Shown: positions 41,795 through 61,388 of the stretch, piece by piece
Position numbering within the stretch: the first letter of the stretch is position 1
Layout of the letters: the number at the start of each line of letters is the position of its first letter
From: Variovorax sp. DXTD-1
Lineage (GTDB): Bacteria > Pseudomonadota > Gammaproteobacteria > Burkholderiales > Burkholderiaceae_C
NCBI RefSeq assembly: GCF_003984625.1
Contig: NZ_RWKH01000001.1
Coordinates: forward strand, 124,001 to 188,000
Direction of reading: 5' to 3'
Length of the DNA stretch: 64,000 bases
Program-made: the position numbers and the translations under genes
The notes under the pieces: generated by a model
Databases searched by the model: none
Told to the model about the DNA's origin: nothing
The model's input: the letters and a program-made list of their open reading frames with translations, nothing else

Positions 41795-42484
41795 ATGAAT
41801 AGTTTCTGGTTAATGGTCACCGGGCTCGGTGACAGTGGATTTCTATTGCCCGCCGCATTGTGGATCGCAATTTGGCTGGCGGTCGACCGCGGCACGCGCC
41901 CGGCAGCGGTGCATTGGGCGCTCCTATTCGGTGGATGCGGTCTGGTGGTCATGCTGTCCAAGCTGGCTTTTCTGGGCTGGGGGATTGGCAGCGCCCGCTT
42001 CGATTTCACCGGCTTCAGTGGACACACCGCATTGGCAACCAGCGTCTGGACGGTCGTCTTCTGGCTTGCGGCGCTGCGGTTTGCACCATTCTTGCGCATT
42101 GCTGCGGCTATCGTGGGATGGGCGTGGGGCCTCGCGGTCGGAGTATCGCGGCTCGCGCTTGAAGTGCACTCCACCGCAGAAGTCGTGACGGGCGTTGCGC
42201 TCGGCACAATTGTGAGCGCCAGCTTTCTATGGCTGCAGCGCAACAGGCTACCTGTGGTGTCGTTGCGAGCGCCCCACTGGCTCGCAGCGGGTGTCGCGAT
42301 ACCGCTGCTACTTTTCGTCGTCGTGGGGCGGCCCGCACCCACTCAGTACGCGCTGGAATCCGTGGCCGCCTGGATGGCGGGCATCGAGCGCCCGTACAGG
42401 CGCAGCGATCTTCTGCACGGCCGCCAACCCGCCCGCGCACCCACGGGGAATTCACAGGTGCTTACAAAAGAGCAAACCTTTTAG
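41795..42484 (+). CDS. PAP2-superfamily membrane phosphatase
   Basis: 229-residue integral membrane acid phosphatase with about six helices. Two of the three PAP2 motifs are clear: FSGHTALATS near residues 73-82 and SRLALEVHSTAEVVTG near 118-133 with catalytic His residues; the N-terminal KX6RP motif is not obvious. Next to a polysaccharide cluster it could recycle undecaprenyl pyrophosphate, but this is inference. Composition is less GC-rich than the core genes. Confidence 0.82.
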   Translation: MNSFWLMVTGLGDSGFLLPAALWIAIWLAVDRGTRPAAVHWALLFGGCGLVVMLSKLAFLGWGIGSARFDFTGFSGHTALATSVWTVVFWLAALRFAPFLRIAAAIVGWAWGLAVGVSRLALEVHSTAEVVTGVALGTIVSASFLWLQRNRLPVVSLRAPHWLAAGVAIPLLLFVVVGRPAPTQYALESVAAWMAGIERPYRRSDLLHGRQPARAPTGNSQVLTKEQTF

Positions 42485-42834: not shown

Positions 42835-44034
42835 ATGAATCACGGAATGTCGAAAAAACCAATTTGTGCAATGGGGATCAATTTGACACGCTACGTGCAC
42901 CCGTCAGGGTGGGGTTTAGCCCTAGTCGGCGCGTTATTGCTGCAGGGTTGCGCACCGGGCTTCAGTTCTGTGTCCGCCTACGAGGCCGACCAGAGCCTGC
43001 CCCCGGAATTCCAGTACCTGCCGGCCGACGGCGCACCGGATGGGGTAATTACCTCGATTTCATCCGCGCTCATCCGCGCGATGGCCGAGGCGCAGCCCAC
43101 GGCCGTACCCTCCGAGGTGAAGGCACTATTCGGCGAGGCGCCGGTCTACACCATCGGGCCGGGCGACGTCGTGGGCGTGATTGTGTACGACCATCCGGAG
43201 TTGCTGCCCAACGCGGGCGCGGTGATCACGCAGCAGGCCGACCCGACAGGCATCAGCGTGGCGCCGGGCTTCATCGTCGGCGCGGACGGGCAGATCACCT
43301 TTCCCTACATCGGGCGCGTCAAGCTCCAGGGGCTGACCGAAATCGAAGCTTCCGATCTCATTGCCAAGCGCATTGCGGCCTACATCCGCGATCCGCAGGT
43401 GACGGTGCGCATCCAGTCCTTCAGAAGCCGCCGCGCCTTCGTTGAAGGCGAGGTGCGGACCCCGGGGCTGCAGATCTTCACCGACGTGCCTATGACGCTG
43501 GCCGAGGCCATCAGCCGTGCCGGCGGCATCACCGCGAACGGCGACCGTTCGTTCGTCACACTGCAGCGCGGCGGCAAGTCGACGCTCATCAATCTGACGA
43601 ACCTCCAGGACCTGGGCGCCGATGCCAGCCAGATTCCGCTGCAGAGCGGCGACGTGATCCAGGTTCGGCACCGCGACGAGAGCAAGGTGTTCGTGATGGG
43701 CGAAATCTCGCGTCCCTCGGCCCTGCTCATGCACAACGGGCGGCTCAGCCTGAACGAAGCGCTCGGCGAGGCCGGCGGGCCCAACCTGGCTTCTGCCAAC
43801 ACCGGGCAGGTCTACGTCATTCGCAACAACGCGAGGGGCCTGCCGGCCATCTTCCATCTGAACGCGAAGAACCCGGCTGCGCTGGCACTCGCCGAGCGCT
43901 TCCCGCTGCAGCCACGCGATGTGGTCTACATCGATTCCGTGCCGCTCGTGACGTGGAACCGCCTGGCCAGCCTGATCCTGCCGGCGGCGCAAGTCATCAA
44001 TGCCGGCGACGAGGTCTGGAGCCGCCACAGATGA
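42835..44034 (+). CDS. wza: Polysaccharide export outer-membrane lipoprotein (Wza family)
   Basis: Outer-membrane translocon for exopolysaccharide; about 399 residues from this start. A lipoprotein signal ends at LLLQGC, followed by the PES domain with YTIGPGDVVGVIVYDHPELL and SLBB repeats (VRIQSFRSRRAFVEGEV; VFVMGEISRPSAL). Start is uncertain: ATGs at 42835, 42847 and 42871 are all in frame, and 42871 gives the most compact signal peptide; none has a good ribosome-binding site. It is followed by wzb and wzc homologues with overlapping starts. Confidence 0.9.
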   Translation: MNHGMSKKPICAMGINLTRYVHPSGWGLALVGALLLQGCAPGFSSVSAYEADQSLPPEFQYLPADGAPDGVITSISSALIRAMAEAQPTAVPSEVKALFGEAPVYTIGPGDVVGVIVYDHPELLPNAGAVITQQADPTGISVAPGFIVGADGQITFPYIGRVKLQGLTEIEASDLIAKRIAAYIRDPQVTVRIQSFRSRRAFVEGEVRTPGLQIFTDVPMTLAEAISRAGGITANGDRSFVTLQRGGKSTLINLTNLQDLGADASQIPLQSGDVIQVRHRDESKVFVMGEISRPSALLMHNGRLSLNEALGEAGGPNLASANTGQVYVIRNNARGLPAIFHLNAKNPAALALAERFPLQPRDVVYIDSVPLVTWNRLASLILPAAQVINAGDEVWSRHR

Positions 44035-44486
44035 AATCCATCCTGACCGTCTGCATCGGCAACATCTGCCGAAGCCCCATGGCGGCGGGCCTGTTGGCCG
44101 CCGGGCTGCCGCATCTTCGCGTCGTGTCCGCCGGTACGGGGGCGCTCGTGGGCAAGCCGGCCGATGCCATGGCGCAAAGGCTCATGCAGCAGCGCGGCAT
44201 CGACATCTCGGCCCACGTCGCGCAGCAGGTGAGTCAGCTGCTTTGCCGGCAGGCCGACCTGATCCTGGTGATGGACATGGAGCAGCGCCGCTATCTGGAA
44301 GCGACCTACCCGTTCGTGCGCGGCAAGGTCTTTCGCATTGCAGAAGCCGCGAAGCAGGACGTGCCCGACCCCTACCGGAAAGACGAGGCGGCCTTCGAGC
44401 ATGCCCTCGCCCTCATCGACGTGGGCGCCAGGACCTGGATCGATCGCATTCTGAAAATTACAAAACCCGAGCAGCAACCGACATGA
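44031..44486 (+). CDS. wzb: Low-molecular-weight protein tyrosine phosphatase (Wzb family)
   Basis: Cytoplasmic tyrosine phosphatase of 151 residues that dephosphorylates the Wzc kinase. The P-loop CIGNICRSP at residues 8-16 and the general-acid loop DVPDPYRKDE near 120 are present. The ATG overlaps the wza stop and the stop overlaps wzc, the conserved wza-wzb-wzc order. Confidence 0.93.
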   Translation: MKSILTVCIGNICRSPMAAGLLAAGLPHLRVVSAGTGALVGKPADAMAQRLMQQRGIDISAHVAQQVSQLLCRQADLILVMDMEQRRYLEATYPFVRGKVFRIAEAAKQDVPDPYRKDEAAFEHALALIDVGARTWIDRILKITKPEQQPT

Positions 44487-46735
44487 ACGCACCCCAGCAA
44501 GCCGCCCTGCCGATGCCAGCGCTGGAAGAAGAGGGCGAAGGAATCAACCTGGTCGAGTGCCTCGATATCCTCGTTGACAACCGCTGGCTCATTGCCATCG
44601 TGACCGCGGCGGCCTTGTTCCTTGGCTTTGCCTATGCCTTCTTCGGCAAGCCCATGTACGAAGCCAACGTGGCGGTGCAGGTGGAAGACTCCGGCAACTC
44701 GGCGGGCAGCTTCCTGGGCGACGCAGCGTCTTCGCTGCTGAGCGTGAAGACCCCCGCCGCGGGCGAAATCGAAATCATCAAGTCGCGCGCCGTTCTGGCG
44801 CAGGCGGTGGAAAACACCAAGCTCTACATCAGCGCGCAGCCGCGCTATGCGCCCGTGGTGGGCAGCTGGCTTTCGCGGCGCGCCACCGATCTTTCGAACC
44901 CCGGCTTCATGGGCCTGTCGGGCTACGTGACCGGCACGGAGAAGATCGTCGTAGCCCAGTTCGACGTACCGGCCGATCTTGAAGAGCAACAGTTCTCTCT
45001 GACTGTACAAGCCGACAACCGCTACGAGCTGGGCCACCCCGGCATCGAAACCCCACTCCAGGGCGCCATCGGAACCCCGCTGGTTGCCAATCTTCCAGGC
45101 GGCAGCTTGCGGCTCCTGGTCAGCTCCGTCAGCGCCAAGCCCGGGGCCCAGTTCCGGCTGGTGCGGTTCTCGAAGCAGCTCACGCTGCTGTCGCTGCAGG
45201 ACGGCCTCAAGGTCGTCGAAAAGGGCAAGCAATCCGGCGTGATCGACGTCAGCTGGAAGCATCCGAGTCCTGAAAAGCTCACGCAGCTGCTCAACGAGAT
45301 CGGCCGCCTCTACGTGCGCCAGAACATCGAGCGCAAGGCTGCCGAGGCCGAAAAGACATTGGGCTTTCTCGATACCGCGCTGCCCCAGTTCAAGAAGCAG
45401 CTCGAGCAATCCGAAGACCTCTACAACCGCTACAGAAACGAGAACGGCACCGTCAGCCTGGACGACGAGGCAAAGAATGCCCTGACGCAGACGGTCGATC
45501 TGCAATCCAAGTTGCTCGAAGCCCAGCAGAAGCGGCGCGAGCTCTCCGCGCGCTTCACGGACAAGCATCCGAGCATCCAGACGCTGGACACGCAAATCTC
45601 GGCATGGAAGGGCGAAATCGCCTCGGTCGATTCGCGCATCCGCAAGATGCCGCTGCTGCAGCAGAACACCGTGCAGATGCAGCGCGACATCAAGGTCAAC
45701 ACCGACCTCTATGTGTCGCTGCTCAACAGCTCGCTGCAGATGCGGCTCGCCAAGGAGGGCAAGGTCGGCAACGTGCGCCTGCTGGACGACGCCATCATTC
45801 CGGAAGAGCCCGTCTGGCCCAAGAGGCCGTTGATCCTCGCCCTGGCATTGCTCTTGGGGCTGATGGCCGGCGTGGCCGCCGCCATCGCAAGAAACTCGTT
45901 CTTCGGCGGCATCCGCAATCCGAGCGAGATCGAAATGCACACGGGGCTCAGCGTCTACAGCAGCATTCCGCTGAGCGGCGCCCAGCGGATGATCGACCGG
46001 AGCATCGAGAACAAGGCGCCCGGCCTCCACATCCTGGCGCTGCAGCATTCGGAAGACCCCGCGGTCGAGAGCCTGCGCAGCCTGCGGACCGCCCTGCAGT
46101 TCGCCATGCTGGAGGCGCCCAACAACCGCTTGCTCATCTCGGGTGCGACCCCGGGGGTCGGGAAGACTTTTGTTTCCGTCAATTTCGCGGCAATTACCGC
46201 CGCGTCCGGCAAAAAGGTTCTTCTGGTCGATGCCGATTTGCGCAAGGGCCGGGTTAATCAATTTTTCTCAATGTCTCGATCACCCGGTTTATCCGAATTG
46301 ATCGCGGGCACATTGAGTCTCGAAAAAGCCGTTCGTTCGTCGGTTCTGCCCAATCTGGACGTGATAACGACCGGGGTGCTTCCACCCAACCCCGCCGAAC
46401 TGCTCATGAGCGATTCTTTTTCGCAGATTTTGGAAAAACTGTCGCCAAGCTATGACTTGGTGATCATCGATACGGCACCGGTACTGGTGGCCGCGGATAC
46501 AGCCTCGGTGGCACCGCTCGCAGGCTCGCTGCTGCTGGTAGCCCGCGCCGAGAAAACCCAGTTGGGGGAACTGAACGAGAGTGTCCGGAGATTGGCGCAC
46601 GCGGGCTGTTCAGCCAATGGCGTCATTTTGAATGCTATGGACTTATCGCGGCGCCACGCGGGTAGCAGCAGCTACAAATATGGTGGTTACCGATACATAC
46701 ACTATAAATATAAAAACAACAGGGATACCACCTAG
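44483..46735 (+). CDS. wzc: Polysaccharide co-polymerase / tyrosine autokinase (Wzc family)
   Basis: Inner-membrane PCP-2a protein of 750 residues controlling chain length and export. In order: Wzz domain with TM1 near 37-55, a periplasmic part with coiled coils (about 285-410), TM2 (about 450-470), and a cytoplasmic BY-kinase with Walker A GATPGVGKTF near 553, Walker A' VDADLRKG near 582 and Walker B LVIIDTAP near 655. The C-terminal tail has a tyrosine cluster YKYGGYRYIHYKYK, the autophosphorylation site. All key residues are intact. Confidence 0.95.
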   Translation: MNAPQQAALPMPALEEEGEGINLVECLDILVDNRWLIAIVTAAALFLGFAYAFFGKPMYEANVAVQVEDSGNSAGSFLGDAASSLLSVKTPAAGEIEIIKSRAVLAQAVENTKLYISAQPRYAPVVGSWLSRRATDLSNPGFMGLSGYVTGTEKIVVAQFDVPADLEEQQFSLTVQADNRYELGHPGIETPLQGAIGTPLVANLPGGSLRLLVSSVSAKPGAQFRLVRFSKQLTLLSLQDGLKVVEKGKQSGVIDVSWKHPSPEKLTQLLNEIGRLYVRQNIERKAAEAEKTLGFLDTALPQFKKQLEQSEDLYNRYRNENGTVSLDDEAKNALTQTVDLQSKLLEAQQKRRELSARFTDKHPSIQTLDTQISAWKGEIASVDSRIRKMPLLQQNTVQMQRDIKVNTDLYVSLLNSSLQMRLAKEGKVGNVRLLDDAIIPEEPVWPKRPLILALALLLGLMAGVAAAIARNSFFGGIRNPSEIEMHTGLSVYSSIPLSGAQRMIDRSIENKAPGLHILALQHSEDPAVESLRSLRTALQFAMLEAPNNRLLISGATPGVGKTFVSVNFAAITAASGKKVLLVDADLRKGRVNQFFSMSRSPGLSELIAGTLSLEKAVRSSVLPNLDVITTGVLPPNPAELLMSDSFSQILEKLSPSYDLVIIDTAPVLVAADTASVAPLAGSLLLVARAEKTQLGELNESVRRLAHAGCSANGVILNAMDLSRRHAGSSSYKYGGYRYIHYKYKNNRDTT

Positions 46736-48954: not shown

Positions 48955-50028
48955 ATGAAAATATTGCACATTGCCGAAACGCTCAAGGGCGGGCTGGAAA
49001 CCTATTTGCGGATGGTTTCCGGCTTTCAGCAGAACTCCCCCATGATCACCCAGGCGAAGTTCGTTTTGCCCGGACCGGTGGAGTGGCTCAGTTCGCAAGA
49101 CACCCACGTGGTGCCCACGGCGCGCAGCCCCTTGGCGCTTGCGAGCTACGCCGCAGAAGTCAGGAAGATCATCCGGACCGAGCGGCCATCGGTTCTTCAT
49201 CTCCACAGCTCGATTGCCGGTGGGGTGGTGCGCGCGATGGCGCTGCTCGGCCAGGTGCCACAAGAGACAAAGATCGTCTATTGCTCGCACGGTTGGGCAT
49301 TCGACCAGATCGGCCCTTCGTACAAGAAGTCCATCTATCGCTGGGCCGAATGGCTGCTTTCATATTGGACCGACGCGATCATCTGCATCAGCGACCATGA
49401 GCTGCGCATCGCCGAAAAATTCGGCATCAAGCGATGCAGGTGCATTCCGAACGGAATCACACCCGCGGCGCTGGGCCATGAACAGGTTGCTGCTCCGGAA
49501 GAGGAGGTTTCGCCGCGGCAAAGACAGATCTTGTTCGTGGGCCGGCTCGACCGGCAGAAGGGTATCGACCTGCTGCTTGATTCCTACGCCAGCGTGCGGC
49601 CTAGATTCAAGCTGACCATCGTCGGCGGCGCCGTTCGAAACGATCTTTCCCTGGCCCGTTCCGATGAAATCGAGTTCAAGGGCTGGCTCGAAAAGGATGA
49701 ACTCGATGCCGCATACCGCTCTTGCGACGCGGTCATCGTACCGTCGAGGTGGGAAGGCTTCGGCTTTGTCGCCGTCGAGGCCATGGCGCGAAGCAAGCCG
49801 GTTTTTGCCTCCGCCGTGGGCGGGCTGGTCGACATTGTCGAAGACACGAAAAACGGACGGCTGTTTCCGCTCGATCGCCTGGACGAAATGCTGCACGAAA
49901 TCGATCAGATTCCGACCGAGGATCTGGTGCGAATGGGACGGAACGGGCGAAAGGTCTTCGAAGAAAAATACACCGCCGACCGAATGAACTCGGCCATCGT
50001 CGATCTCTACAAGGAGTCGGTACTTTGA
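48955..50028 (+). CDS. Glycosyltransferase family 4 protein
   Basis: GT-B glycosyltransferase of 357 residues. N-terminal IAETLKGGLETYLRMVSGFQ near residues 6-25; the C-terminal half has ILFVGRLDRQKGIDLLLDSY near 191-210 and the nucleotide-sugar site VPSRWEGFGFVAVEAMARSKP near 261-281 with the EX7E arrangement. Donor and acceptor are not predictable. It is the only ordinary glycosyltransferase seen in the region. The stop TGA shares one base with the next ATG. Confidence 0.9.
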   Translation: MKILHIAETLKGGLETYLRMVSGFQQNSPMITQAKFVLPGPVEWLSSQDTHVVPTARSPLALASYAAEVRKIIRTERPSVLHLHSSIAGGVVRAMALLGQVPQETKIVYCSHGWAFDQIGPSYKKSIYRWAEWLLSYWTDAIICISDHELRIAEKFGIKRCRCIPNGITPAALGHEQVAAPEEEVSPRQRQILFVGRLDRQKGIDLLLDSYASVRPRFKLTIVGGAVRNDLSLARSDEIEFKGWLEKDELDAAYRSCDAVIVPSRWEGFGFVAVEAMARSKPVFASAVGGLVDIVEDTKNGRLFPLDRLDEMLHEIDQIPTEDLVRMGRNGRKVFEEKYTADRMNSAIVDLYKESVL

Positions 50029-51287
50029 TGAGATATTCATCCCTGTCCGGAATGGCCAAGCTCTTTTGCGCAGTGATGGTGCTTGCCGCAATCTCGCTCC
50101 CGGCACAGGCGCGGGGCGTCAGCGAGCTGAGCACCGAATATCCGACCGCACTGAGCGTGCAGATCGACCCGAGCGATATATCGGACGAAGACCTGAACGA
50201 GATCAGGGCGGCCGGGTTCGAGTTCGTCCGGTTCGGCGTGCGGCCGCCGCTGAAAAGCGTCAACCCCGCAATGATCGACTACTCGAAGCTGATCCGGCGC
50301 GTGCGCAATGCCAGGCTCGAAGCCATCGTGACGCTGTTCGGAGGCAGGGAGATCTGGGGGCACGATTCGTCGGACCAGCAGGCCGGTGGGCAGAAGGAAA
50401 AGCTGTTCGCAAACTTTGCGGCCGAATTCATGAACGCACACGCCGCCGACGTGGCGGTGTGGGAACTGTGGAACGAGCCTGACCACAAGACGTTTCTGAA
50501 CCCGGCGCTTTTTTCGAGCTTCCAGACGGCGACCGCTGAGTTCTGCCGCAGCATCACGCAGTTGAAAAACCAGCCGCAGATCGTCATGGGCTTCGGGTTT
50601 GCGAAGCTTCCTTTCAAGCAGGGCCAAGTTCCTCTGCAACTCGAAAACGCCTTTGTCTCGGCGGCCAAGGCCAATTGCCTGACGGACATATCGATCCATC
50701 CTTACCGTTCCGTTCCTGAAACAGCCATTGCCGACTATAGAAAGCTGCGTGGCAAGCTGGACGAACTGCAGCTTGGAAAGGTCGGCATCGTTGCTTCCGA
50801 ATGGGGGTATGCGTCGTATCTTCCTGTTCGGGACCGCAACACCCAGGCTTCGCTCATCTTTCGCGAATACCTGACCAATGTTGCTGCTGGCATCAAGCTC
50901 CTGAACCTCTATGCGTGGCAAGACCGGGGAACTTCCGCCATTTCGAGAGAAGACAATTTCGGGCTCAAGTCGAAGGGGGGCGAGAAGAAGGAAGCCTTCT
51001 CCAGCCTTACCGAATTCCTCAAGATTGCCAGAAATTCCAGGAAGGTTTCTTACGAGAGCAACGCCGGGCTGAACAAGCTGGTGCTGAGCCGTGGAGCTTC
51101 GCTGCTCCACGTGGTGTGGACGCAAAGCTCTGAGCAGAACGTGCTGGTGCCCGCCGAAAAGGGAAAGAAGTGCACGCGCGTCGATTTCTTCCCGCAGGTG
51201 CGGCACGGCACCTGCGGCAATCCGGTCGACGGGGGCTTTGCTGCCAAGGCAACCGCCTATCCGTTCCTGTTGTCGATTTCTGACTGA
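50028..51287 (+). CDS. Secreted glycoside hydrolase (GH5/GH39-like, PslG-type)
   Basis: 419-residue exported TIM-barrel hydrolase. The signal peptide ends near AQA (about residues 26-28). The likely acid/base Glu is in WELWNEPDH near residue 147 and the likely nucleophile Glu in VASEWGYASY near 260, the spacing of clan GH-A enzymes. Placement between a glycosyltransferase and a flippase suggests it trims the exopolysaccharide in the periplasm, as PslG does for Psl; substrate and exact family are uncertain. Lower GC than the core genome. Confidence 0.8.
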   Translation: MRYSSLSGMAKLFCAVMVLAAISLPAQARGVSELSTEYPTALSVQIDPSDISDEDLNEIRAAGFEFVRFGVRPPLKSVNPAMIDYSKLIRRVRNARLEAIVTLFGGREIWGHDSSDQQAGGQKEKLFANFAAEFMNAHAADVAVWELWNEPDHKTFLNPALFSSFQTATAEFCRSITQLKNQPQIVMGFGFAKLPFKQGQVPLQLENAFVSAAKANCLTDISIHPYRSVPETAIADYRKLRGKLDELQLGKVGIVASEWGYASYLPVRDRNTQASLIFREYLTNVAAGIKLLNLYAWQDRGTSAISREDNFGLKSKGGEKKEAFSSLTEFLKIARNSRKVSYESNAGLNKLVLSRGASLLHVVWTQSSEQNVLVPAEKGKKCTRVDFFPQVRHGTCGNPVDGGFAAKATAYPFLLSISD

Positions 51288-52558: not shown

Positions 52559-55500
52559 CTAGCGCCGTTCGAACTTCAGGATGTTGTCGCCCGTGCCCGG
52601 CGCACCGCTGTCCGGCGGGCCGAACTTGAAGGCGCTCGGGTCGCGCGCGGACGTCATCTCGTACAGCGGGTGGATGCGGCCCAGGCGCGCACCGCCGTCG
52701 CGCACCAGCGGCGCCCATGCGAAGTTGGCGGTGAACTTGTTCGAGCGCGGCAGCAGCGCATCGAAGGGCACCGAGATGTAGATGCCCTTGTCGAAGCTGC
52801 CTTCGCCGAACTGCCTTGCCGAGATGTTGGTCTTGGTGGCATAGGCGCCGAGCACCACGCCGTTGTCGAATCGGCGGCTGATGTCGATGGTCACTCCACG
52901 GTCGCCCGCCAGGTACTGCCCCGCGCTGATCTTGGCGAGGATGCCGTTCCAGCCGGTGTCCCAGTAGAGCGTGGCATGGCCGGTGTTGACCTTGTAGTCG
53001 CGCAGGCCGAAGTCCTGGTCGAAGTCGCGTTGCCGCACATGGTTGAAGTCGATGCCGATGGCCATGCGGCTGCGCCATGGGCGATAGAGCCATTCCGCGC
53101 CGACGCCCGCGTACATGCTTTCCAGCGCACCGCCGTACACGCTGTAGTACTGGTCGTCCGTGAGTTTGCCCACGTGCGTCAGCTGCAGCACCGGCATGGT
53201 CAGGCGCTTGGCGGTGACGAACTCGCGCTGCAAGGTTCGCACGCGGGGCAGGTTGCTGGGCGCCGTGTAGGTGAACTTGTCGAAGTTGTCGAGCAGGCGC
53301 AGGTTCAGCGCACCGTTCACCCAGGTGCTTGGCGTGAAGCGGTATTCGGCAACCGCCTGCACGCCGATCTGGTAAAGCACGAACGCATTGGGGCCGCCCA
53401 GGATCTGGCCGAGGCTGGGTGTCAGGCCGATGCTGAACTTGGAGGTGCGGCGCTCCCACGGCGCGAGCGCCTTGTTGTCGTCCGCAATCCCGGGCGCGTC
53501 CCTCGACGCGATGGCCGCATTGGCATTCGAAATGTTGGCCGGCTGGAAGTCGGCGCCGATGGGCGGGGGCGCATAGTCGCGCTGGCTGGCCGCGCGCGCT
53601 TCGCTGGGCGTTTGCGCCTGGTAGTGCGCCGTGACCCACTCGTTCCGGTCGACCACTTGCGCATGCATGGGCAAGCCGCGCTCCGAGTAGTGCAGCACGA
53701 AGTTCTTGATGGTGCCCGGCGCATCGCGGTGCAGCACGGCAATGATCTGCTCGACGCGCGCGTTGCGGTACACGGTGGCGCTTTCGGTGATCCACACGTG
53801 CAGCATCTGGCCCTGCGGCGCAATGCGCTGGACGGTCCACTCGGTGCGGCTTTCGATGTCGGCCGCGGTGGCGGCCCAGCCTGGCGATGTGGCAGGCGGC
53901 GTCGGCGAAAAGCGCGGCGCCGGCGGGTCTGCCGTCTTGGCCATCTGCATGTTCGCCAGGTTGGTTTGCAGCGTGAGGCCCACCATCACCTTGTTGCCGC
54001 GCTCCAGGCCGGCCGAGAAGGTCACGCCAGGGGCGTAGCGGTATTCCAGGCCGATATTGATCGGCGAGCGCCGCGGCTGGTCGTTGTTGAGCGGTTCGTT
54101 CTTGTAGTTGTTGCCCTCGAACTCGAGCTTGAGCGTGAGCGGGTCCCAGGGCGTGCGCAATTGCACGCCGCCGAAGAGCGCGGTGGGTCCGCGAAAGAGC
54201 CGACCGAAGTTGGCGCCGCCCCATGTGGTCTCGCTCACGCGGGTCTTGAAGCGGCTGCTCAGCAAGCCGAAGGGGTTGCTGATGTTGCCGCTGCTGCCCA
54301 TGTAGCCCCAGCCGATGCCGAGGCTGAAATCCAGGTCGCCGTGGCGCTTGCTCGCCACCAGGTACTCGGAGGAAAAGAGACCGGTACCGCCGATGTCGCG
54401 AAAGCCCAGCGCCACCTCGGGGAGGTAGGCCGACTCTTTCCACAGCCGCGCCTTGAAGTCGATGCTCTTGTCCTTGTAGTCCTGGTTGCTCAGGCCGATA
54501 CCGTAGATGCGGTTGCCGATGGACGTGTAGCGGAAGCCGGCTTCCAGCCAATCGAGCGGCTGGAACATCACGTTCAGCCGCGTATAGGGCGAGACATGCG
54601 TGATGGAGGTGCGCATGTCGCCTGTCTGGCCCATGCGGGCCGAGGGCGTCTGCAGTAAGCCGGTTTCGCCCCAGTCGTTGCCGCTGGGCTGCAGCGGGCG
54701 GTACTGCGGTACCGCCTCGGGGCGCACCGAAACGGTGGTGGGCTGGAACGGTGTGGCCGGGGGAGAGGACTCTGTCGCCAATGGAATGGCCGCAGGTGCC
54801 GCGGCCGCAGGGGCGCTGGTCGCAAAGGCCGTAGCCGCGGCGGGCATTTCTGCCATCGTATTGCCCTGCGGCGATGGCCCTTGCGTGGCGAGGAACTTGA
54901 TCAGCCCTTCGGAAACTGCCTCCAGGTCGTCCTTGCCGCGAGGGGGCGCCCACATCCAGGCGCCGGGTGCCGGCTCGTCCGACGGATGCGCATTCCACTT
55001 TGCCGTGCCGACACGCGCGGTGCGGCCGTCGGGCTGCGCCACCCATGCCCAGTCGTGCTTGCTTTCGGGGTCGCAGGCCGCGACATAGTCCCATGCCGTG
55101 CGGCCCGGCTCGTGCGCCACCTGGCAAAGCCGACCGTCGGGCTGCACCACCGAAATGGTGCTCAGGACCGGCGGAGGCGCAATGAGCTGCTGGCCTGCCG
55201 TGAGCACCGGATCTTCTTCGGGGTGCGCCTCGAGCCAGCGCGGGTCCACAATGCCGAGCGCAACCCGGCCCGTGACGGGAAGGTTCTGCAGCCATGCGAT
55301 CAGCTGTTGGCGCTGGGCCTGTTCGGCCCGGGGCGCGCGCCGCCTGGCGGCCTCGAGCCGCAGCAGCACCTGGTTCTTCAGGAACTGTTGCGCCAGCCGC
55401 TCCTGTGGAACGCGCCAGGACAAGCCAGGGGCGGCCGATTCCGTCGGCTGCCGCAGCAGCCAGGCACTCAGGCGTTCGCCCGGGCGAATGTCGGCATCGT

Positions 55501-55639
55501 TGGCCGGTGTCTTGTTGTCGACCGGGCCGCTGCCCAGGGGCTGGGCCGCCGCGGCGCAACTGGCTGCGAGCGCGCAGGCCACCACCGCGCGAAGGGGCCA
55601 GGGTTGTCTGCCGGAGCCACGAAGAAGCAAACGGCTCAT
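52559..55639 (-). CDS. Fused GfcC/YjbG-like and GfcD/YjbH-like outer-membrane protein
   Basis: 1026-residue exported protein. After a signal peptide (to about 35), residues about 45-245 resemble GfcC/YjbG (RPGERLSAWLLRQP; LPVTGRVALGIVDPRW). A Pro/Ala-rich linker follows (about 250-325), then a YjbH/GfcD beta-barrel beginning GETGLLQTPSARMGQ near 330, with many alternating aromatic strands to the end at F-E-R-R. In E. coli these are two separate proteins of the exopolysaccharide yjbEFGH or capsule gfcABCDE operons. The ATG overlaps the upstream yjbF-like stop (ATGA). It faces the flippase gene, 42 bp away. Confidence 0.8.
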   Translation of the reverse strand: MSRLLLRGSGRQPWPLRAVVACALAASCAAAAQPLGSGPVDNKTPANDADIRPGERLSAWLLRQPTESAAPGLSWRVPQERLAQQFLKNQVLLRLEAARRRAPRAEQAQRQQLIAWLQNLPVTGRVALGIVDPRWLEAHPEEDPVLTAGQQLIAPPPVLSTISVVQPDGRLCQVAHEPGRTAWDYVAACDPESKHDWAWVAQPDGRTARVGTAKWNAHPSDEPAPGAWMWAPPRGKDDLEAVSEGLIKFLATQGPSPQGNTMAEMPAAATAFATSAPAAAAPAAIPLATESSPPATPFQPTTVSVRPEAVPQYRPLQPSGNDWGETGLLQTPSARMGQTGDMRTSITHVSPYTRLNVMFQPLDWLEAGFRYTSIGNRIYGIGLSNQDYKDKSIDFKARLWKESAYLPEVALGFRDIGGTGLFSSEYLVASKRHGDLDFSLGIGWGYMGSSGNISNPFGLLSSRFKTRVSETTWGGANFGRLFRGPTALFGGVQLRTPWDPLTLKLEFEGNNYKNEPLNNDQPRRSPINIGLEYRYAPGVTFSAGLERGNKVMVGLTLQTNLANMQMAKTADPPAPRFSPTPPATSPGWAATAADIESRTEWTVQRIAPQGQMLHVWITESATVYRNARVEQIIAVLHRDAPGTIKNFVLHYSERGLPMHAQVVDRNEWVTAHYQAQTPSEARAASQRDYAPPPIGADFQPANISNANAAIASRDAPGIADDNKALAPWERRTSKFSIGLTPSLGQILGGPNAFVLYQIGVQAVAEYRFTPSTWVNGALNLRLLDNFDKFTYTAPSNLPRVRTLQREFVTAKRLTMPVLQLTHVGKLTDDQYYSVYGGALESMYAGVGAEWLYRPWRSRMAIGIDFNHVRQRDFDQDFGLRDYKVNTGHATLYWDTGWNGILAKISAGQYLAGDRGVTIDISRRFDNGVVLGAYATKTNISARQFGEGSFDKGIYISVPFDALLPRSNKFTANFAWAPLVRDGGARLGRIHPLYEMTSARDPSAFKFGPPDSGAPGTGDNILKFERR

Positions 55640-56391
55640 GTACCAGCGCTCGCCGCTGCGACGGGTGCTGGGGAAGAAGGCGTCCACTGCTCGAAACTCA
55701 TACACAGATCATTGGAAATACATTGCTCGGAATAAACGACTCGCGGGGTGCCGCCCGCTTGCGAAACGCCGAAGCGCGCGGGGGGCAGCGAGGCGCTTGC
55801 CGGCCGGGAAACGCTGCGCTCCTCGTACCAGCGCAGGGAAGCAGCGGCCGTGCCAGCCAGTGAGACTTGCTGCGGTGCGGCAATCGGCGCCAGCACGATC
55901 TCGTCGCGAATGCCGAAACGGTAGCCCGGCATCATGTCGCGCTGGCGTTGGTAGGTTTTTATGGAGGTCGGGCTGCTCGCCTCGGCGGCCCAGGCCGGCA
56001 GCCCCGAAAACCGCACCTCCCGCCAGTCGGCGGAAAGTCCGGTGGTTCCCACCAGGCGCCCGTCGAGCAACCTGACGACCTCGCCGCTGCCGCTGTACCA
56101 GACTTCGACCGCGCCTTCGGGACGCTTGTCGATATAGCCGAGCACCATGAACACCGTTTGATTGCCGGTGGCCACGCGCAAATAGCGGTAATTAGGATTA
56201 AAGGTGGGAGGGGGCGCCGAAGAGGTGCCGCTATAGATATGCCGCGCCGTTGCCAGCATGGCAGAAGAGCCGGAAGAACAGCCGCCAACGCCCAAAAGAA
56301 ATGCCGCCAAAAGACAGCATTCAACAAGTCGCGTGGCTTGGCCAACGCGCGGACTATTCAGCGAATGCCCTCCCGTCAGGAGGGCCCGCAC
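55636..56391 (-). CDS. YjbF/GfcB-like lipoprotein
   Basis: Outer-membrane lipoprotein of 251 residues matching the YjbF/GfcB family of polysaccharide accessory proteins. Signal sequence ends in a lipobox LGVGGC with Cys at about residue 37. The body has NYRYLRVATGNQTVFMVLGY split near 65-84 and EVWYSGSGEVVRLLDGRLVGTTGL near 93-116. The start is a GTG at 56391, two bases after the yjbE-like stop; no ATG is available. A 7-bp hairpin overlaps the start region. Confidence 0.78.
   Translation of the reverse strand: MRALLTGGHSLNSPRVGQATRLVECCLLAAFLLGVGGCSSGSSAMLATARHIYSGTSSAPPPTFNPNYRYLRVATGNQTVFMVLGYIDKRPEGAVEVWYSGSGEVVRLLDGRLVGTTGLSADWREVRFSGLPAWAAEASSPTSIKTYQRQRDMMPGYRFGIRDEIVLAPIAAPQQVSLAGTAAASLRWYEERSVSRPASASLPPARFGVSQAGGTPRVVYSEQCISNDLCMSFEQWTPSSPAPVAAASAGT
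56371..56389 (-). other. Hairpin at the yjbE-yjbF junction
   Basis: On the minus strand GCCCTCC and GGAGGGC pair around a 5-base loop, just inside the presumed GTG start of the yjbF-like gene. There is no T-run. It could stabilise the upstream yjbE-like mRNA or hinder translation of yjbF. Confidence 0.45.
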
Positions 56392-56393
56392 GA

Positions 56394-56681
56394 TCAATTC
56401 GTGCCGGTAGTACCTGTGCCGGTGCCGCCCGTACCGCCGGTGCCGCTGCCGCCACCGCTGTTGCCCCCGTTTCCGCTGGCTACTGCAGCTGCCAGGCCGG
56501 CGCTGGCGGCCACGCCGCCAGCCTGTCCGGCAGCAATGCGGCCGAACGCGGAATTGGTTGCGCCCGTGGCGCTTGCCGGCTGCGGGGCGGGCGTTTGAGA
56601 CGGGGGCGGGGTTTGCGCCAGTGCCGAAGAAATGCCTGCAGCTGCAATGACGGTTGCGGAAACCAGTGGCTTGATTCTCAT
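56394..56681 (-). CDS. YjbE/GfcA-like small exported protein
   Basis: 95-residue protein with a signal peptide (cleavage near ALA, about residue 21), a Pro/Gln/Ala stretch, AFGRIAAGQAGGVAASAGLAAAV split across the middle and a low-complexity Gly/Thr/Ser C-terminus ending GTTGTN. YjbE and GfcA of E. coli are similarly small, Gly/Thr-rich and lead their operons. Ribosome-binding site AAGGA is eight bases upstream. Function is unknown. Confidence 0.7.
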   Translation of the reverse strand: MRIKPLVSATVIAAAGISSALAQTPPPSQTPAPQPASATGATNSAFGRIAAGQAGGVAASAGLAAAVASGNGGNSGGGSGTGGTGGTGTGTTGTN

Positions 56682-61312: not shown

Positions 61313-61388
61313 GCCGCTTTAGCTCAGTTGGTAGAGCACCCGCCTTGTAAGCGGAAGGTCGTCAGTTCGATTCCGACAAGCGGCACCA
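61313..61388 (+). tRNA. tRNA-Thr (anticodon TGT)
   Basis: 76-nt cloverleaf. Acceptor arm GCCGCTT pairs with AAGCGGC, the D-loop carries AGCTCAGTTGGTAGAGC, the anticodon loop is CTTGTAA with anticodon TGT, the T-loop TTCGATT, and the 3' CCA is encoded. It lies 34 bp after sspB and is followed by a bidirectional terminator. Confidence 0.97.

What the first reader, a model, noticed from the sequence alone, without database searches (positions are those of the whole stretch)
52559..55639. YjbG-like and YjbH-like proteins fused into one 1026-residue outer-membrane protein
Seen: one continuous frame with a GfcC-like N-terminal domain, a Pro/Ala linker and a YjbH-type barrel; the yjbF-like and yjbE-like genes precede it. 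In E. coli GfcC and GfcD (YjbG, YjbH) are separate, so the fusion implies they work as a stable 1:1 unit, with GfcC held at the periplasmic mouth of the barrel.
Basis: partly seen in the sequence, partly recalled or inferred. Interest (0 to 1): 0.55.

Follow-up and report, generated by a model that had tools for sequence, protein, structure and literature searches.

The report
Capsule-export helper and pore fused together
In this soil bacterium two capsule-secretion proteins that E. coli makes separately are one continuous protein, an arrangement already reported in a Burkholderia; many relatives also carry a phosphatase domain on the other end, a clue to what this little-understood pore exports.

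Summary
The fusion is real. A single frame on the minus strand (55639..52559, 1026 aa) carries a GfcC-like domain (residues about 47-265), an Ala/Pro-rich linker, and a complete YjbH/GfcD protein: a 12-strand barrel, a middle domain and a 13-strand barrel. Pfam sees GfcC only weakly. A family profile (solved E. coli GfcC 3P42, E 1.4e-15), the fold (3P42 is the best Foldseek match; Z 16.5 over 210 residues) and gene order (in 19 of 19 split loci of the phylum sample the gene directly upstream matches) settle it. The fused forms make one clade on my tree. The window's organism is Variovorax-like.

It is not new in kind. Larson et al. 2021 described OtnG of Burkholderia thailandensis as resembling a GfcC-GfcD fusion and inferred coupled function. 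That GfcC sits at 'the mouth of the barrel' is not shown: there are two barrels, and the linker is predicted disordered.

The less expected result lies in the relatives. Many GfcC-YjbH fusions, and a separate YjbH clade, end in a PAP2 phosphatase domain resembling the lipid phosphatases PgpB and LpxE, with catalytic residues largely kept. My searches listed no paper describing this. It fits the proposal that GfcD exports lipid-anchored polysaccharide. The window protein lacks this domain.

The parts
52559..55639 (-). fused gfcC-gfcD (yjbG-yjbH) gene, 1026 aa
55541..55639 (-). Sec-type signal peptide (about residues 1-33)
   Evidence: hydrophobic stretch at residues 18-32, mean KD 2.17; cleavage site inferred by eye
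54845..55501 (-). GfcC-like domain, residues 47-265
   Evidence: 3P42 profile E 1.4e-15, VIA Z 16.5 over 210 residues, pLDDT mostly above 90 for residues 51-260
54692..54844 (-). Ala/Pro-rich linker, residues 266-316, predicted disordered in its first half
53960..54619 (-). N-terminal barrel, 12 strands, residues 341-560, FapF/KdgM-like
53573..53878 (-). middle domain (GfcD-M), residues 588-689
   Evidence: 5 strands and 3 helices in the model, as described for GfcD in PMC8592465
52706..53437 (-). C-terminal barrel, 13 strands, residues 735-978
   Evidence: matches to OmpG and CymA, lower to PelB, PgaA and BcsC barrels
52559..52705 (-). C-terminal tail, residues 979-1026, and stop; in many relatives a PAP2 domain is attached after it
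55636..56391 (-). yjbF/gfcB-like lipoprotein gene, overlapping the fusion by 4 bases; start codon uncertain
   Evidence: PF11102 E 7.6e-11; lipobox-like LLGVGGC read by eye
56394..56681 (-). small yjbE/gfcA-like ORF, 95 aa (tentative)
   Evidence: no Pfam match; similar ORFs in 2 of 80 loci, L081 and L082
42787..44034 (+). Wza-like OPX export protein of the neighbouring polysaccharide cluster
43953..44486 (+). Wzb-like low-molecular-weight tyrosine phosphatase
   Evidence: PF01451 E 9.7e-31
44000..46735 (+). Wzc-like tyrosine kinase / co-polymerase (true start lies downstream of this ORF start)
41795..42484 (+). separate membrane PAP2-superfamily gene at the head of the polysaccharide cluster
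   Evidence: PF01569 38.2 bits; only 6.7 bits with the model of the fused PAP2 domains

Best explanation
The gene encodes an outer-membrane polysaccharide-export unit of the group-4-capsule (Gfc/Yjb) type in which the periplasmic adaptor GfcC is built into the double-barrel protein GfcD/YjbH. One signal peptide sends the chain to the periplasm. The two barrels fold into the outer membrane. The GfcC domain, with two beta-grasp folds, hangs in the periplasm on a flexible linker and can rebind the pore and the YjbF (GfcB) lipoprotein without diffusing away, turning a weak three-part contact into a permanent one. The unit works beside the Wza/Wzc export proteins encoded about 6-10 kb away, probably moving or anchoring a polysaccharide, possibly a lipid-linked one, at the cell surface. 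Shown here: domains by sequence and predicted fold, fusion, yjbF neighbour, clade. Taken from papers: the E. coli binding constants, the role in capsule export, the simulated lateral gate. Inferred: that the same contacts form here and what the substrate is.
For: Domain identity by profile, fold and gene order. Predicted 12 + 13 strands with a middle domain of 5 strands and 3 helices, as reported for E. coli GfcD (PMC11494523 abstract and passages; PMC8592465 Discussion). yjbF directly upstream with ATGA overlap; a YjbF-like ORF in 70 of 80 related loci, and 8 of the 10 misses have under 0.5 kb of DNA before the gene. Only one PF06082 and one PF06251 match in the window's own genome, both in this gene, so no free GfcC or GfcD was found to substitute. 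Polysaccharide genes next door. E. coli GfcB, GfcC and GfcD bind each other (PMC8592465).
Against: No experiment on a fused protein turned up in the papers seen. The Pfam GfcC score is below its cut-off in the protein scan. The Wza/Wzc cluster is on the opposite strand and may serve another polymer. YjbF was not found in 2 loci with ample upstream DNA (L091, L151). E. coli GfcD itself has no proven substrate.
Confidence: 0.7

Rival explanations
1. The fusion is a neutral consequence of losing the stop codon, overlap and second signal peptide between two translationally coupled genes; GfcC gains nothing from the tether, and only expression stoichiometry is fixed.
For: In split relatives the two genes are adjacent or overlapping, so one frame-joining event is easy. 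A single change on the tree explains all fusions. The linker is flexible.
Against: The 85 labelled rows of the fused clade all keep both halves, and the GfcC part has invariant residues, two of them cysteines (C172, C189). But the 80 named loci were picked with a fused query, so re-split members could have been missed; the unbiased samples add 14 to 19 fused genomes each (family and order).
Confidence: 0.2
2. The protein is mainly a surface or amyloid-type secretion/anchoring platform rather than a polysaccharide pore: barrel 1 resembles the amyloid exporter FapF, and the small yjbE-like protein could be its cargo.
For: Barrel 1 best matches FapF (Z 16.8). The idea was raised for GfcD in PMC9603273 (passages read). 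A small secreted-looking ORF precedes yjbF.
Against: Barrel-1 matches are tied with KdgM, an oligogalacturonate porin (Z 16.5). The neighbours are polysaccharide genes. yjbE-like ORFs were detected in only 2 of 80 loci (low-complexity filter on, so possibly under-counted).
Confidence: 0.1

Closest known systems
OtnG of Burkholderia thailandensis (GfcC-GfcD fusion; PMC8592465)
   Same: GfcC at the N-terminus, GfcD at the C-terminus, similar length (995 against 1026 aa), as stated in the paper's Discussion
   Different: Different genus; OtnG itself was not fetched or aligned here
E. coli GfcBCD / YjbFGH
   Same: Same three components, same order, overlapping frames; same 12 + 13 strand plan
   Different: GfcC and GfcD are separate proteins
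Class 2 OPX proteins (KpsD type)
   Same: Also carry a GfcC-like module in a larger polypeptide (PMC9603273 passages)
   Different: There GfcC mostly follows Poly_export/SLBB domains; the window protein matches neither
Porphyromonas gingivalis LpxE (PMC12704123)
   Same: Precedent for a PAP2 phosphatase combined with a predicted outer-membrane barrel and weakly hydrophobic helices (passages); relevant to the PAP2-carrying relatives only
   Different: Small predicted 8-strand C-terminal barrel, lipid A 1-phosphatase; the window protein has no PAP2 domain

Membership tests
YjbH/GfcD (PF06082) | Full-length match to the family model | tested here: met
   775.6 bits, positions 2-657/658
YjbH/GfcD (PF06082) | Two barrels (12 + 13 strands) around a middle domain | tested here: met
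   Model strands 341-560 (12), 735-978 (13), middle domain 588-689; pLDDT 84.5, pTM 0.81. Prediction, not a solved structure
YjbH/GfcD (PF06082) | Lateral gap between first and last strand of barrel 2 | not testable with these tools
GfcC | PF06251 at or above the curated cut-off | tested here: inconclusive
   17.9 bits against 20 in the protein scan; 21.7 bits in the genome scan
GfcC | Sequence-profile and fold match over most of the solved GfcC | tested here: met
   3P42 E 1.4e-15; Z 16.5, rmsd 3.9, 210 aligned of 234
GfcC | Gene position directly before gfcD in split genomes | tested here: met
   Profile of the fused domain hits the ORF just upstream in 19 of 19 loci L169-L187, and in 9 of 11 of L003-L011, L032, L033; in 2 of 7 of L216-L219 and L221-L223; not seen in the distant YjbH loci such as L012-L022
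gfc/yjb operon | GfcB/YjbF lipoprotein gene just upstream, overlapping | tested here: met
   PF11102 E 7.6e-11, ATGA overlap
gfc/yjb operon | GfcA/YjbE small protein | tested here: inconclusive
   95-aa ORF in place, no Pfam match
GfcC-GfcD fusion of OtnG type | GfcC N-terminal, GfcD C-terminal in one frame | tested here: met
OPX (Wza/KpsD) | Poly_export (PF02563) domain | tested here: not met
   Only PF06082 and PF06251 match up to E 1
PAP2-carrying YjbH | C-terminal PAP2 domain | tested here: not met
   No PAP2 match; only 29 residues follow the YjbH match

The most novel reading that the evidence does not exclude
YjbH/GfcD is the outer-membrane end of a lipid-linked polysaccharide pathway, and many of its relatives carry their own lipid phosphatase: a C-terminal PAP2 domain of an LpxE/PgpB-like fold that removes a phosphate or pyrophosphate from the lipid carrier or anchor as the glycan passes the pore. 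In the fullest version one polypeptide holds the adaptor (GfcC), two barrels, two middle-type domains and the phosphatase. The Variovorax-like protein in the window is a form without the phosphatase, with any such activity supplied by another protein or not needed.
Probability: 0.4. Interest if true: 0.68.

Novelty: new member of a known kind. Interest (0 to 1): 0.42.

Why it matters
What GfcD/YjbH exports is still open (PMC8592465 says it has no direct data on function). A fused adaptor makes the GfcC-GfcD unit obtainable as one chain, which sidesteps the 28 uM affinity of the E. coli parts. The PAP2-carrying relatives give a handle on substrate: a phosphatase fixed to the pore should act on what the pore handles, so testing which lipid phosphates it hydrolyses would test the lipid-anchored-polysaccharide model of Fruet et al. 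2024.

Tried and rejected
Reading the weak Pfam GfcC score as absence was rejected after profile, fold and gene-order tests. phmmer of the single protein against solved structures gave 7 weak matches (best E 0.68), none to GfcC; only the profile reached GfcC. An OPX identity was rejected (no Poly_export). A second, free GfcC or GfcD elsewhere in the genome was looked for and not found.

The window's own PAP2-type gene (41795..42484) was considered as the detached counterpart of the fused phosphatase. The fused-domain model scores it at only 6.7 bits, I see no first PAP2 motif in it by eye, and it has strongly hydrophobic segments (maximum mean KD 2.05 against 1.09-1.48 in 9 fused domains sampled); not supported. 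Of the 8 PAP2 matches of the own genome, the fused-domain model reached its threshold in 1, weakly (19.6 bits).

A profile of the middle domain was used to confirm the second copy in long relatives: 8 of 29 rows (some near-identical) passed HMMER's inclusion threshold in a search with all filters off; with default filters none was listed. The stronger support is the Pfam model itself, which matches its middle-domain region again in such frames at E 1.6e-8 to 5e-4.

GfcC contact with the barrels could not be read: no model coordinates reach the script box. One statement is hand arithmetic with no call: a 55-residue flexible tether gives an effective concentration of millimolar order. Solan et al. 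2021 (multi-barrel proteins) is not held, so whether it lists PAP2 fusions is unknown to me; I know it only from recall and from the papers that cite it. The eLife lipocone paper (PMC12419801, passages) mentions neither YjbH nor GfcD; it notes that the PAP2 superfamily has soluble versions.

Full report
WHAT IS THERE. The frame is on the minus strand, 55639..52559, 1026 residues. Pfam places YjbH (PF06082) on residues 320-997, essentially the whole model, E 7.1e-233; GfcC_C (PF06251) appears only at E 0.0033 and 17.9 bits, below the cut-off of 20, and at 21.7 bits in the genome-wide scan. Nothing else matches up to E 1. The gene overlaps the stop of a yjbF-like lipoprotein gene (PF11102, E 7.6e-11). 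A 95-aa ORF before that sits where yjbE should be but has no family match. The own genome has one PF06082 and one PF06251 match, both here.

IS THE N-TERMINAL PART GfcC? Three different tests say yes. First, a profile of the window protein and 62 fused relatives (alignment A2) finds the solved E. coli GfcC, 3P42, at E 1.4e-15 over 201 profile positions; a single-sequence search had not. Second, the predicted model (63 sequences, mean pLDDT 84.5, pTM 0.81; blocks 51-260 at 89 or more) has 3P42 as best Foldseek match (E 2.0e-6, probability 1.00, TM 0.65 by target), and VIA-align gives Z 16.5, rmsd 3.9, 210 residues, model 47-265 against chain 35-255 of 3P42. The two beta-grasp domains and C-terminal helix of GfcC are as described in PMC9603273 (passages); the aligned range covers them. 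Third, a profile of the fused domain alone finds a separate ORF of 254-449 aa directly upstream of the YjbH frame in 19 of 19 split loci L169-L187, which come from genomes of the same class but other orders (E 2e-4 to 3e-43), and in 9 of 11 of L003-L011, L032 and L033 (misses L009, L011). Against this: of the 7 further loci other than L220, it was found in 2 (L217, L221) and not in 5 (L216, L218, L219, L222, L223), and in the distant YjbH loci such as L012-L022 it was not seen (flanks of 1.5 kb in many). L220 is listed under things noticed.

ANATOMY. In the model, barrel 1 has 12 strands (341-560), the middle domain has 5 strands and 3 helices (588-689), and barrel 2 has 13 strands (735-978), followed by a 48-residue tail. 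This is the plan reported for E. coli GfcD: 12 strands, a middle domain with 5 strands and 3 helices, 13 strands (PMC8592465, Discussion read whole; PMC11494523, abstract, passages and Discussion). Barrel 1 is closest to FapF and KdgM (Z 16.8 and 16.5), barrel 2 to OmpG and CymA (Z about 11.8) and, lower, to the polysaccharide exporters PelB, PgaA (by entry title 'polysaccharide outer membrane secretin') and BcsC (Z 10.4, 10.2, 9.5). The linker between GfcC and barrel 1 (259-316) holds 16 Ala and 11 Pro of 58, carries no signal-peptide-like stretch (maximum mean KD 1.25 against 2.17 in the real signal), and is predicted disordered at 264-290.

WHO HAS IT. The closest named records are Variovorax (84-85% identity). 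In a sample of the phylum, 60 of 398 genomes have PF06082, and 2 of these 60 have the GfcC-YjbH fusion, the window's genome and another of its genus. That count rests on frame length for most hits and for the loci fetched; the long frames of G422 (seen in L067), G1109 (L220) and G1102 (L216) show no GfcC domain. In the class sample 28 of 369 have PF06082, and the other 27 have frames of at most 824 aa. In the order sample 54 of 399 have it, and 19 of these 54 show the fused GfcC domain; 3 more frames (L049, L052, L057) are cut by a contig end before it could appear, and 4 genomes with short or weak matches (G441, G486, G685, G712) were not fetched. In the family sample 29 of 299 have it, 14 of 29 fused. 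On a tree of the YjbH part (142 rows, 134 after identical rows were dropped; quick method; 8 of the 142 have cut frames and no label), fusion to GfcC needs one change, and the 85 labelled fused rows fall in one set with support 100. The tree's own check warns of long branches among the split rows. The 80 named loci come from one scan with a fused query that kept the best 80 of 577 confirmed; where their titles name a group, it is betaproteobacterial or just 'proteobacterium'. They say nothing on frequency.

ALREADY PUBLISHED. Larson et al. [quoted passage not shown] The same paper measured GfcB-GfcC near 100 nM and GfcBC-GfcD at 28 uM. A search for OtnG with Burkholderia listed only this paper. 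So kind and interpretation are known; the window adds a Variovorax-like member, and the surveys place it in one clade.

HOW IT LIKELY WORKS. Inference from the above: the tether replaces a weak encounter. With about 55 flexible residues the local concentration of GfcC is of millimolar order (hand arithmetic, no call), well above 28 uM, so if the E. coli contact is conserved GfcC is nearly always engaged, and YjbF can dock on it. The attachment point is barrel 1, not barrel 2; whether GfcC rests on barrel 2, the middle domain or elsewhere is unknown.

THE RELATIVES' EXTRA DOMAIN. Many longer frames in the order and family samples carry more after barrel 2. Pfam finds PAP2 phosphatase (PF01569) in 4 of the 6 relatives scanned, at E 7e-13, 5e-14, 3e-16 and 3.5e-15 (L039, L042, L055, L053); the other two (L035, L044) are of the window's type. 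A model built from the motif-bearing members matched 74 ORFs of the 160 loci held then; in 73 the match is long and ends within 21 residues of the frame's end, and one is a fragment. Labels over 142 rows including the window: GfcC-YjbH 41, GfcC-YjbH-M-PAP2 29, YjbH 26, GfcC-YjbH-PAP2 23, YjbH-PAP2 15, unlabelled 8. Of the 80 named loci 40 have PAP2, 35 do not, 5 are cut. 'M' means that more than 110 residues lie between the YjbH match and PAP2; in such frames the Pfam model matches its middle-domain region (around positions 252-372) again, and my own profile does so weakly (8 of 29 past inclusion). In the 73 aligned fused PAP2 domains (some genomes counted twice through two tools) all keep Arg-Pro of motif 1, the Ser of motif 2, and Arg, His, Asp of motif 3; 71 of 73 keep the motif-2 His; 64 of 73 keep the motif-1 Lys (Arg in 9); 60 of 73 keep the first Pro of PSGH; its Gly is replaced in 46 of 73. 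The motif names are recalled. In the model of L160 (GfcC-YjbH-PAP2; pLDDT 81.6, pTM 0.76) this domain best matches B. subtilis phosphatidylglycerolphosphate phosphatase (5JKI, Z 17.1) and A. aeolicus LpxE (6EBU, Z 16.9, rmsd 2.4, 147 residues), ahead of soluble acid phosphatases (about 12.5). Against this reading: helical bundles can reach Z near 13 without meaning, by the tool's note; in sequence the closest solved PAP2 chains were a 'PAP2 family protein' and acid phosphatases, weakly (E 0.009 and 0.018); and a shared fold does not show a shared substrate. Nine sampled domains have no strongly hydrophobic segment (maximum mean KD 1.09-1.48), in line with the reduced hydrophobicity reported for the outer-membrane-predicted LpxE of P. 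gingivalis (PMC12704123, passages), but also with a soluble enzyme. PAP2 needs at least 11 changes on the tree, so it comes and goes; in Variovorax ginsengisoli one locus has it (L089) and one does not (L102). Searches for PAP2 with YjbH, for PAP2 with barrel and capsule terms, for DUF940, and for GfcD with phosphatase or PAP2 listed no paper on such a fusion by title or start of abstract; only open-licence papers are held, and most hits were not opened.

VERDICT. Observation right, strand to be added, identity much firmer than Pfam alone suggests. Interpretation partly right and already in print. The value lies in a tractable one-chain version of a poorly understood export unit and in the phosphatase clue from its relatives.

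Noticed in passing
L036-L039, L041-L043, L045-L048, L050 and 40 of the 80 loci L081-L160: GfcC-YjbH fusions that end in a PAP2 phosphatase domain, many with a diverged second middle domain between barrel 2 and PAP2.
   Followed up: partly
L053, L055, L056, L058-L062, L065, L067-L072: A divergent YjbH clade without GfcC in the frame also carries C-terminal PAP2 (15 labelled rows).
   Followed up: partly
L089:2050-4725, L101:2339-4795, L156:2078-4645 and others: Large OPX proteins near some of these loci match the fused-GfcC profile; of 7 scanned (632-892 aa) Pfam GfcC_C is over its cut-off in 1 (L089) and below it in 2 more (L101, L156). GfcC-like modules may thus occur on both partners.
   Followed up: partly
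window 41795-42484: Separate membrane PAP2-superfamily gene at the head of the polysaccharide cluster, apparently lacking the first motif.
   Followed up: partly
P0001 residues C172 and C189: Two cysteines in the GfcC domain are invariant in the 63-sequence alignment; a disulfide is possible.
   Followed up: no
G1007:C1:62378-64352: YjbH match split between two overlapping frames (positions 1-325 and 323-657), so barrel 1 and barrel 2 lie apart: a natural split or a frameshift.
   Followed up: no
L220 (G1109): 1002-aa YjbH frame with an internal insert and a neighbouring 783-aa ORF that matches the GfcC profile at 1e-20.
   Followed up: no
L123, L125: Metagenome bins titled Bordetella parapertussis carry these fusions and group with Limnohabitans and other freshwater-type rows; the labels look doubtful.
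   Followed up: no
window 49722-51287: Long ORF in the polysaccharide cluster without a Pfam match up to E 1; reads by eye like a glycoside hydrolase.
   Followed up: no
window 61313-61388: tRNA-Thr (tgt), the only RNA gene that ARAGORN and Rfam (gathering threshold) found in the window.
   Followed up: no
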